A stretch of DNA of 64,000 nt from Alphaproteobacteria bacterium (GTDB lineage Bacteria; Pseudomonadota; Alphaproteobacteria; Thalassobaculales; Thalassobaculaceae): positions 1-64,000 of the forward strand of contig JANSYC010000010.1 in the NCBI GenBank assembly GCA_024742605.1, in the 5' to 3' direction. A model generated the notes under the pieces. It saw only the letters and a list, made by a program, of their open reading frames with translations. It did not search any database and was not told where the DNA came from. The translations under genes and the position numbers were made by a program. Shown here piece by piece: positions 7,720 through 10,573 of this stretch (within the stretch, counting starts at the first letter, position 1; each line of letters opens with the position of its first letter).

Positions 7720-8025
7720 ATGGCATTGCCGCCAACCGGATCCGGGCCGGGAAGTCTGCGGGAGCGGGCCGGGCTTCCCGCGGGCCGGTCGCCTGCGACC
7801 CCGGCCGGACGCGCGGCCCCGCAATCCGCGCCCGCACCGGCCGCGCGCCCGGCGGCGGCACCGGCATCGTCCGATCCGTCGAAGCCGGCCAAGGGTCGTC
7901 GTCTGCGCACCGCCATGACCGATGCGGACATCGACCGGCAGATCCGGCGTCTGATGAGTTTGATCGCGAACGACAATATCGATCCGAATGCGCCACCGGG
8001 CAGTTACCTGAACATCCTGCTTTAG
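7720..8025 (+). CDS. Pro/Ala-rich small hypothetical protein
   Basis: Protein of 101 aa. About 60 residues of low-complexity Pro/Ala/Arg sequence precede a compact C-terminal part (AMTDADIDRQIRRLMSLIANDNIDPNAPPGSYLNILL) that looks like a folded helix pair. A good GGGGAGAG ribosome site precedes the ATG. The stop overlaps the stop of the convergent TauE gene by 4 bases. The family is not recognised. Confidence 0.65.
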   Translation: MALPPTGSGPGSLRERAGLPAGRSPATPAGRAAPQSAPAPAARPAAAPASSDPSKPAKGRRLRTAMTDADIDRQIRRLMSLIANDNIDPNAPPGSYLNILL

Positions 8026-8777
8026 CCGAGCAGCCGGGCGAGGTGCGGGGCCACCAGGGTCAAGCCCGACAGGCCCAGCAGCACCAGCAGAACCCGGGCA
8101 AACGCCTTGTCGTTCACGCGCTTGTAGAGCCGGATCCCGGCCCATCCGCCCAACGCGATTGCCGGCAGGGCCAGCAGCAGTGTCCAGCCGACATCGGCGG
8201 TCAGCCGACCCGCCACGCCGTAACCGGCGAGGGTGGCGATGTGCATTGCCGTGTTGAACAGCTGGAACACGCTGCGCTGCCGGTCCTTCGGCCAGCGGCG
8301 GAGCGAGCACCAGATCGTGGGCAAGACCCCGGACAGGCCCGCGAATCCACCCAGCACGCCGCCTGCGAAGCCGACCGCGCCGTCCGCGAACCGGTTGTCG
8401 GTCCGGACCGTCGGCATCCGGCCCGAGGTCAGCACACTGATGGAATAGATCAGCAGAATCCCGCCCGCCATCAGCCGGAAATCGTCCGGCGACAGGGTCG
8501 AGAGGAGCGTAACGCCGACCGGAACGCCCAGCACACCTGCAAGCACGAAGGGCAGGGCCGTTTTCCAATCGAGGACCTTCCACAGCATCGGGATCGCCAT
8601 AAGCTGAACCGAGAGGGACGCGGCGACGACGACCGGCGTCAGAAGCTCAGGGGGCAGGACATGGGCATACAGACCCAGCGTGGTCGCGGCAAAGGCGAAC
8701 CCCGCCAGCCCGCTCGCCAATCCACCGAGACCGGCGCCGAGCAGGATGACTGTGATGATGAAAGGATCGGTCGGCAC
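8022..8777 (-). CDS. TauE/SafE-family sulfite exporter-like permease
   Basis: Polytopic inner-membrane protein of 251 aa with about eight hydrophobic helices. It opens with GAGLGGLASGLAGFAFA and has the repeated half GFAGGVLGGFAGLSGVLPTIW, both typical of the TSUP (TauE/SafE/YfcA) family. Members export sulfoacetate, sulfite or related organosulfur anions. No sulfur-metabolism gene adjoins it, so the substrate is open. Confidence 0.85.
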   Translation of the reverse strand: MPTDPFIITVILLGAGLGGLASGLAGFAFAATTLGLYAHVLPPELLTPVVVAASLSVQLMAIPMLWKVLDWKTALPFVLAGVLGVPVGVTLLSTLSPDDFRLMAGGILLIYSISVLTSGRMPTVRTDNRFADGAVGFAGGVLGGFAGLSGVLPTIWCSLRRWPKDRQRSVFQLFNTAMHIATLAGYGVAGRLTADVGWTLLLALPAIALGGWAGIRLYKRVNDKAFARVLLVLLGLSGLTLVAPHLARLLG

Positions 8778-8811: not shown

Positions 8812-9333
8812 CTACTTGGTCGGGTACGCCGTCAGCAGCACACAGCTTCCGTCACCGTTGGCCATCAGGACGGCGACCATGTTGTAGGCGGGGATCGGAG
8901 AGGCATTGCCGCGTTGGACCGTAACCCCGATGGGCTCCTGGAACCCCATGCGCAACTGGGCACGCTCGCCCCGTCCAGCGGTGTCGGCCCAGCCATCCAG
9001 ATCCGTCTCTTCCGGAAGCAGAAGAAGGGACAGGGCGCGGGTTGCGATCTTGCGGTCCTTGAAGCTGCTCGCGGCCGGAATCCGAGGTTCCCGTTTCAGC
9101 CGCTCGTTCAACTCAACCGGCGTTCGGGAGACGTGACGGTCAAGCGTGTGGCCGCCACCGACTTCCATCTCGATCAGCCAGTCTTCGTCGATCTTGCTCG
9201 GAACGCAGTCCCCCGGTTTCGCCGCCTCCGCCGCTTGCACGGAGAGAAGGACGGCGAAACCGGTGATGGCAATGGCCAGACCCCGGGCCCATTTGGCTTT
9301 GAAGATGTTCGGAAAGCGGAGGGTCTGGGACAT
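8812..9333 (-). CDS. Secreted RNase A-like (CdiA-CT type) domain protein
   Basis: Protein of 173 aa with a signal peptide (hydrophobic GLAIAITGFAVLLSVQAAEA, cleavage near residue 37) and then one compact domain. It reads GGGHTLDRHVSRTPVELNERL, RIPAASSFKDRKIATRAL, GVTVQRG and finally VLLTAYPT at the C terminus. This order matches the bacterial RNase A-like toxin domain first seen at the C terminus of CdiA contact-dependent inhibition proteins. Candidate catalytic residues are His62, His67, Thr168 and Tyr170; Cys43 and Cys164 could form a disulfide. The second of two consecutive ATGs is chosen because AAGGAG lies 6 bases upstream. No immunity-like gene adjoins it. Confidence 0.75.
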   Translation of the reverse strand: MSQTLRFPNIFKAKWARGLAIAITGFAVLLSVQAAEAAKPGDCVPSKIDEDWLIEMEVGGGHTLDRHVSRTPVELNERLKREPRIPAASSFKDRKIATRALSLLLLPEETDLDGWADTAGRGERAQLRMGFQEPIGVTVQRGNASPIPAYNMVAVLMANGDGSCVLLTAYPTK

Positions 9334-9358
9334 CATGCACTCCTTGGGCGAAACTCGC

Positions 9359-10573
9359 CTACGCCATCGCTTTCTGCAGGTTCTCGTCCAGTTTGCCGAG
9401 AAACTGTTGCGTGGTCAGCCACGGCTGATCCGGGCTGATCAGCAGCGCCAGATCCTTGGTCATGGCGCCGGCCTCGACCGTATCGACACACACCTTTTCG
9501 AGGGTCTGGGCGAAGGCGGCGACCTCGGGCGTCTCATCGAACTTTGCCCGGAACGCCAACCCACGGGTCCACGCGAAAATCGACGCGATCGGGTTGGTCG
9601 ATGTTTCCTTGCCCTGCTGATGCTGGCGATAGTGACGCGTCACGGTACCGTGTGCCGCCTCCGCCTCGACGGTCTTGCCGTCCGGCGTCATCAGCACCGA
9701 GGTCATCAGACCGAGAGAGCCGAAGCCCTGCGCCACAGTGTCGGACTGCACATCGCCATCGTAGTTCTTGCAGGCCCAGACGAATCCGCCATTCCACTTC
9801 ATCGCGGCGGCCACCATATCGTCGATCAGGCGGTGCTCGTAGATGATCCCCTTGGCCTTGAACTTGTCCTTGAACTCGGCCTCGAACACCTCTTCGAACA
9901 GATCCTTAAAGCGCCCATCATAGGCCTTCAGGATGGTGTTCTTGGTGGACAGGTAGACCGGCCAGCCCAGGTCGAGGCCGTAGTTCATACAGGCCCGTGC
10001 GAAGCCGCGGATCGACTCGTCGTGGTTGTACATCGCCATGGCGACGCCGGAGCCCGGGAAGTCGTGGACCTCGCGGGTAACGGTCTCTCCGCCGTCGGCC
10101 GGCTGGAAGGTGATGGTCAGTTTGCCGGGGCCCGGAACCAGGAAATCGGTGGCGCGGTACTGGTCGCCGAAGGCATGCCGTCCGATCACGATCGGCTGGG
10201 TCCAGCCCGGAACCAGACGCGGGACGTTCTTGCAGATGATCGGCTGCCGGAAGACGGTGCCGCCCAGGATGTTGCGGATTGTCCCATTCGGGCTGCGCCA
10301 CATCTGCTTCAGGCCGAATTCCTCGACCCGCGCCTCATCAGGGGTGATGGTCGCGCACTTGACCCCGACGCCGAACTCCTTGATGGCGTTCGCGCTGTCG
10401 ATGGTGATCTGGTCGTTGGTTTCGTCCCGCTTTTCGACGGAGAGATCGTAGTATTTGAGGTCTACATCCAAATACGGGTTGATGAGTTTGTCCTTGATCA
10501 TCTGCCAGATGATCCGGGTCATCTCATCGCCGTCGAGTTCCACGATCGGTTTGGCAACCTTGATTTTGGCCAT
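9359..10573 (-). CDS. icd: NADP-dependent isocitrate dehydrogenase
   Basis: TCA-cycle enzyme of 404 aa converting isocitrate to 2-oxoglutarate with NADP. It opens [21 protein letters not shown] and carries the substrate motif SPNGTIRN, then [29 protein letters not shown] and the coenzyme motif [12 protein letters not shown]. This is the homodimeric eukaryote-type subfamily common in Alphaproteobacteria, not the E. coli type. Length is normal. It stands alone, with its own upstream spacer of about 90 bases. Confidence 0.96.

What the first reader, a model, noticed from the sequence alone, without database searches (positions are those of the whole stretch)
8812..9333. Stand-alone secreted RNase A-like domain without an obvious immunity gene
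The sequence shows a signal peptide followed directly by a domain with the GGHT...HV, ASSF.DR and C-terminal LTAYPT pattern of CdiA C-terminal RNase A-like toxins. In CDI systems this domain is carried on a giant CdiA and paired with a CdiI immunity protein. Here it is a 173-aa free protein between a TauE permease and icd, with no immunity-like neighbour. It could be an exported antibacterial or nutritional RNase, or a domesticated enzyme held inactive in the cytoplasm by lack of a disulfide (Cys43-Cys164).
Basis: partly seen in the sequence, partly recalled or inferred. Interest (0 to 1): 0.75.

Follow-up and report, generated by a model that had tools for sequence, protein, structure and literature searches.

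The report
Exported RNase A-like enzyme lacking immunity gene
A marine alphaproteobacterium exports a small RNA-cutting enzyme whose closest known relatives are bacterial warfare toxins, but here it stands alone, has no antidote gene, carries a conserved cysteine pair suited to the cell envelope, and has been inherited next to a core metabolic gene, so it looks like a toxin domain turned into a resident enzyme.

Summary
Window 9333..8812 (-) encodes a 173-aa protein: a signal peptide, then one bacterial RNase A domain (PF18431, E 7.8e-25). Its predicted fold matches the Y. kristensenii CdiA toxin domain (5e3e, E 1.7e-9, TM 0.83). All four published active-site residues are kept (His67, Arg78, Thr168, Tyr170). 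It is the only copy in the genome.

Orthologues occur in 11 of 36 genomes of the family (Thalassobaculaceae), 10 of them directly after icd. The mature domain is under strong purifying selection (dN/dS 0.04-0.10). Cys43 and Cys164 are invariant in all 10 intact orthologues and absent at those positions in the nine other relatives aligned.

The main new result is a contrast. Every other small envelope-targeted relative examined (Acidobacteria, Planctomycetia, another alphaproteobacterial family) has a CdiI_2-type immunity gene directly downstream. This clade has none, beside the gene or convincingly elsewhere in the genome.

Best reading: a former toxin domain fixed as a resident periplasmic or secreted RNase, kept apart from cytoplasmic RNA by export and probably needing a disulfide. 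Enzyme activity and role are inferred, not shown. Ribocin of P. aeruginosa (2026) is a published precedent for an exported RNase A-fold enzyme, which lowers the novelty.

The parts
8812..9333 (-). Exported bacterial RNase A-like protein, 173 aa (alternative start ATG at 9336)
   Evidence: PF18431 E 7.8e-25; Foldseek to 5e3e_B E 1.7e-9, TMt 0.83; orthologues in 11 of 36 family genomes
9208..9333 (-). Signal peptide and short linker (residues 1-42); AXA-type cleavage site just before the first Cys, no lipobox in this clade
   Evidence: Read from sequence and alignment A1; low pLDDT in residues 1-40; dN/dS 0.27-0.57 against 0.04-0.10 in the mature part
8815..9153 (-). RNase A-like catalytic domain (residues 61-173) with His67, Arg78, Thr168, Tyr170
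   Evidence: Alignment to 5e3e_B gives one constant offset for Ykris H175/R186/T276/Y278 as listed in PMC9086364
9205..9207 (-). Cys43 codon, predicted disulfide partner 1
   Evidence: Invariant in 10 of 10 clade members, absent at this position in 9 of 9 other relatives
8842..8844 (-). Cys164 codon, predicted disulfide partner 2, first residue of the last strand
   Evidence: Same calls; secondary structure
9359..10573 (-). icd (NADP-dependent isocitrate dehydrogenase), directly upstream and probably co-transcribed
   Evidence: NF006156 770.8 bits; conserved icd-RNase order in 10 genomes
8022..8777 (-). TauE/SafE permease, directly downstream
   Evidence: PF01925 E 4.1e-28; downstream of the RNase gene in 8 of 10 icd-linked loci

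Best explanation
This is a resident periplasmic or secreted ribonuclease derived from a polymorphic-toxin RNase A domain. A Sec-type signal peptide exports it. Outside the cytoplasm Cys43 and Cys164 probably form a disulfide that ties the N-terminal end to the catalytic C-terminal strand. The His/Arg/Thr/Tyr site then cuts RNA without metal. Export keeps it away from the cell's own RNA, so the immunity gene that its relatives need could be lost. The likely job is to degrade RNA in the periplasm or surroundings, for nutrient recovery or clean-up. Shown: fold family, conserved active site, signal-peptide-like N-terminus, Cys co-occurrence, absence of linked immunity, purifying selection, inheritance next to icd. 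Inferred: RNase activity, disulfide formation, location and role.
For: PF18431 match. Fold match to 5e3e, with the domain at pLDDT about 97. Active-site residues aligned: His, Arg and Thr invariant in the clade, Tyr or Phe at the fourth position. Both Cys in 10/10 clade members and neither at those positions in 9/9 others. DsbB present in the genome. Same place after icd in 10 genomes of four genera. dN/dS 0.04-0.10 in the mature domain. No CdiI_2 in 36 family genomes and no convincing hit with a wider immunity profile, whereas comparable envelope-targeted relatives have one next door. The icd-linked proteins form one clade (96/97), placed with moderate support among toxin-immunity pairs.
Against: No activity data. 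The gene is patchy: 25 of 36 family genomes lack it, including complete ones, so the job is dispensable. RNase T2, the usual periplasmic RNase family, occurs only in one genus that also has this gene, so there is no sign that one replaces the other. The signal peptide was judged by eye. Ribocin shows that an exported RNase A-fold protein can instead be an offensive effector (PMC13189344).
Confidence: 0.55

Rival explanations
1. It is a secreted attack or defence enzyme, like Ribocin: exported to the periplasm, released, and acting on RNA or ribosomes of other cells such as protist grazers or competing bacteria. Its own cell is safe because the enzyme never meets cytoplasmic RNA.
For: Ribocin is an exported stand-alone RNase A-fold enzyme with the same kind of active site (H60, K75, T159, Y161). 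Its relatives here are toxins. The patchy distribution suits an accessory weapon.
Against: Steady vertical inheritance beside icd and strong purifying selection. No secretion or delivery gene at the locus. Target unknown.
Confidence: 0.25
2. It is still a toxin with an immunity partner that is unlinked or unrelated to CdiI_2.
For: All other envelope-targeted relatives examined keep an immunity gene. Immunity proteins diverge fast, so a distant one could be missed; some neighbours read here as immunity proteins score only E 8e-4 to 4e-3 against CdiI_2.
Against: No CdiI_2 hit in 36 genomes and only a weak 0.55 hit, of 32 residues with a stop inside, in this genome with the wider profile. The genes directly downstream differ between genomes; the DUF6614 gene there in some is also present where the RNase is absent.
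Confidence: 0.12
3. It has lost RNase activity and now serves as an RNA-binding, cyclic-nucleotide-hydrolysing or structural envelope protein.
For: One genus has GGD in place of GGH and AFPT in place of AYPT.
Against: His67, Arg78 and Thr168 are invariant in the clade. Phe at the Tyr position also occurs in a Pantoea toxin that still has its immunity gene, so it does not mark decay.
Confidence: 0.08

Closest known systems
CdiA-CT of Yersinia kristensenii (PDB 5E3E; Pfam PF18431 RNAse_A_bac)
   Same: Same domain family and fold, and the same four active-site residues
   Different: That one is the tip of a giant CdiA, has no disulfide, and has a CdiI partner. This one is a free exported protein with a conserved Cys pair and no immunity gene
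Ribocin (RbcN, PA14_21120) of Pseudomonas aeruginosa (PMC13189344)
   Same: Stand-alone protein with a signal peptide and RNase A fold; His and a Thr-x-Tyr pair at the active site
   Different: Ribocin carries no annotated domain and is only 15% identical to Ykris, with Lys in place of Arg. It is an offensive enzyme against animal ribosomes; nothing of the kind is known here
RNase A-like domain-containing lipoprotein (NCBIfam NF041883)
   Same: Small exported protein of the same domain type by name; weak match, 40.5 bits
   Different: Far below its cut-off of 200. The window protein has no lipobox
Stand-alone envelope-targeted PF18431 proteins with CdiI_2-type neighbour (Acidobacteria L030/L031, Planctomycetia L035, alphaproteobacteria L041/L043)
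   Same: Small single-domain proteins with an N-terminal signal or anchor
   Different: They lack the Cys pair and have an immunity gene directly downstream
RNase I / RNase T2 family
   Same: Would do the same job: an exported general RNase without an immunity gene
   Different: Unrelated family; none in this genome

Membership tests
PF18431 bacterial RNase A-like domain | Profile match above the curated cut-off | tested here: met
   88.4 bits against 27, full length
PF18431 bacterial RNase A-like domain | RNase A-like fold of CdiA-CT Ykris | tested here: met
   Foldseek E 1.7e-9, TMt 0.83, 28% identity. No vertebrate RNase A among the 50 best matches listed, so 'RNase A-like' rests on the published classification of 5E3E
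PF18431 bacterial RNase A-like domain | Active site His/Arg/Thr/Tyr | tested here: met
   H67, R78, T168, Y170 by alignment
PF18431 bacterial RNase A-like domain | Metal-independent RNase activity | not testable with these tools
   Needs purified protein
CDI toxin system (CdiBAI) | Domain carried at the end of a large CdiA | tested here: not met
   173-aa free ORF
CDI toxin system (CdiBAI) | Cognate CdiI gene directly downstream | tested here: not met
   34 bp to TauE; no CdiI_2 in the genome; wider profile has no convincing hit
CDI toxin system (CdiBAI) | TPS (haemagglutination activity) domain protein in the genome | tested here: inconclusive
   No match, but no control genome rang either
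Ribocin | Signal peptide, RNase A fold, His and Thr-x-Tyr active site | tested here: met
   Compared with published residue numbers only
Ribocin | Sequence orthology to RbcN | not tested
   Ribocin sequence not fetched, see referred steps
Ribocin | Cleavage of eukaryotic rRNA helix 69 | not testable with these tools
   Needs biochemistry
RNase T2 (RNase I) | PF00445 match | tested here: not met
   The protein matches only PF18431 in Pfam, and no PF00445 in the genome

The most novel reading that the evidence does not exclude
A lineage of bacteria turned a polymorphic-toxin RNase A domain into an immunity-free, disulfide-gated housekeeping RNase of the cell envelope. This would be a bacterial parallel to the digestive and secreted RNases of vertebrates, with safety provided by compartment and redox state instead of an immunity protein.
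Probability: 0.4. Interest if true: 0.65.

Novelty: new variant of a known kind. Interest (0 to 1): 0.48.

Why it matters
[quoted passage not shown] This clade is an exception with a clear genomic contrast, and Ribocin is another published stand-alone exported case. It offers a simple test of how a toxin domain can become safe without an antidote: by export, and perhaps by needing a disulfide that cannot form in the cytoplasm.

Tried and rejected
RNase T2 replacement: this genome lacks RNase T2, but so do nearly all relatives, and the only family genus with it also has the RNase A-like gene, so the distribution does not support replacement.

The AFPT variant as decay: rejected, because a Pantoea toxin with an intact immunity neighbour has the same Phe.

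The 116-aa gene between the RNase and TauE in some relatives as immunity: it is DUF6614 and is also present where the RNase is absent.

The split gene in G022 as a pseudogene: icd is split in the same contig too, so sequencing error is as likely.

NF041883 lipoprotein family: match far below cut-off and no lipobox.

Promoter and terminator scan: nothing above chance between icd and the RNase gene.

Full report
OBSERVATION. The ORF on the minus strand, 9333 to 8812, encodes 173 aa. The second ATG (9333) fits an AAGGAG motif 6 nt upstream and is conserved in the closest relative. Pfam gives one match, PF18431 RNAse_A_bac, E 7.8e-25, over the whole 113-position profile. The only solved relative by sequence is 5e3e_B, the CdiA-CT toxin of Yersinia kristensenii (E 2.4e-8). 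It is the only such domain in the genome.

FOLD AND ACTIVE SITE. A model from 19 related sequences has pLDDT about 97 in the domain. Foldseek finds 5e3e_B at E 1.7e-9, TM 0.83 on the target, 28% identity; beyond the two chains of 5e3e nothing reaches E 0.001. No vertebrate RNase A is among the 50 best matches listed, so the name 'RNase A-like' rests on the published classification of 5E3E. A review lists the Ykris catalytic residues as His175, Arg186, Thr276 and Tyr278. The alignment fits all four with one constant offset and gives His67, Arg78, Thr168 and Tyr170 here. His67, Arg78 and Thr168 are invariant in the clade; the fourth position is Tyr or Phe.

EXPORT AND CYSTEINES. The N-terminus has a basic start, a hydrophobic stretch and an AXA-like cleavage site just before Cys43, as do most orthologues; the divergent G006 copy (L020) has a hydrophobic start without a clear AXA site (judged by eye, no signal-peptide program was available). 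Cys43 and Cys164 are the only cysteines in the mature protein. Both are present in all 10 intact clade members and neither is present at those positions in nine other relatives, toxins and stand-alone proteins alike. DsbB is present in the genome. A disulfide is therefore likely but not shown. Ykris CdiA-CT has none.

DISTRIBUTION AND SELECTION. Named relatives are Thalassobaculum litoreum, T. fulvum, strain BAL199 and related MAGs. Eleven of 36 family genomes have the gene. Ten have it directly after icd, usually followed by TauE; in the eleventh (G006) a divergent copy lies near the LOG gene without icd. In the PF18431 search of 385 genomes sampled across the class only 8 match. The mature domain has dN/dS 0.04-0.10, the signal part 0.27-0.57. 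This is the pattern of a maintained exported enzyme. The gene is dispensable at family level: complete genomes of genus g2 lack it.

THE IMMUNITY CONTRAST. The other small envelope-targeted PF18431 proteins I found (lipoprotein L030 and L031 of Acidobacteria, L035 of Planctomycetia, TM-anchored L041 and L043 of another alphaproteobacterial family) each have a CdiI_2-like gene directly downstream (and for L041). Pfam confirms L030 (1.3e-7) and L035 (1.9e-18), with weak matches for L043 (7.7e-4) and L031 (4.4e-3). A profile from six immunity proteins then finds those of L041 and L104, neither used to build it, at about E 1e-14 or better, and L039 at 6e-9. The hits to the six proteins that built the profile are circular and are not counted as evidence. 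The Pantoea plasmid toxins also have annotated CDI immunity genes next door. In the window, 34 bp separate the RNase gene from TauE. CdiI_2 has no match in any of 36 family genomes, and the wider profile gives only a 0.55 hit in this genome, 32 residues with a stop inside. A tree places the nine icd-linked proteins in one clade (96/97), grouped with moderate support (89/91) with the G006 copy and the TM-anchored, immunity-bearing proteins. Loss of immunity is the simplest reading, though deep branches are weak.

HOW IT LIKELY WORKS. Exported RNase, cutting RNA outside the cytoplasm by the His/Arg/Thr/Tyr site, safe because it is exported and probably because its disulfide forms only outside. 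Whether it feeds the cell, cleans up RNA or attacks others is open. Ribocin shows that an exported RNase A-fold protein can be offensive. Icd linkage and purifying selection favour a resident role, but only moderately.

COMPARISON AND NOVELTY. It is a member of PF18431. It is not a CDI system: two defining features were tested and not met. It resembles Ribocin in architecture; orthology was not tested. I rate it a new variant of a known kind: an immunity-free, cysteine-paired, vertically inherited branch of a toxin-domain family.

LIMITS. Genomes are partly MAGs, so absences are provisional. The immunity search cannot exclude an unrelated inhibitor. No activity, location or redox data exist. 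The TPS search was uninformative because no control genome rang.

Noticed in passing
window 7720-8025 (+): Small ORF between the aminotransferase and TauE with a Pro/Ala-rich start and a strongly conserved end (RQI.RLMSLIANDNIDP.APPGSYLN.L). Similar ORFs lie at the same place in relatives (L013 9467-9718, L018 9203-9499). No Pfam match.
   Followed up: partly
L013 8365-8715, L019 1072-1422, L096 5592-5942: DUF6614 protein between icd/RNase and TauE in some relatives, also where the RNase gene is missing; absent from this place in the window.
   Followed up: partly
L044 and L105: PF18431 domain fused behind a region that looks like a phage minor head (MuF-type) protein, in two alphaproteobacterial genomes; the MuF reading is by eye only.
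   Followed up: no
L020 8585-9955: A 456-aa protein with no Pfam match sits beside the divergent RNase copy in G006, where icd is absent; by eye it resembles a fructose-bisphosphatase.
   Followed up: no
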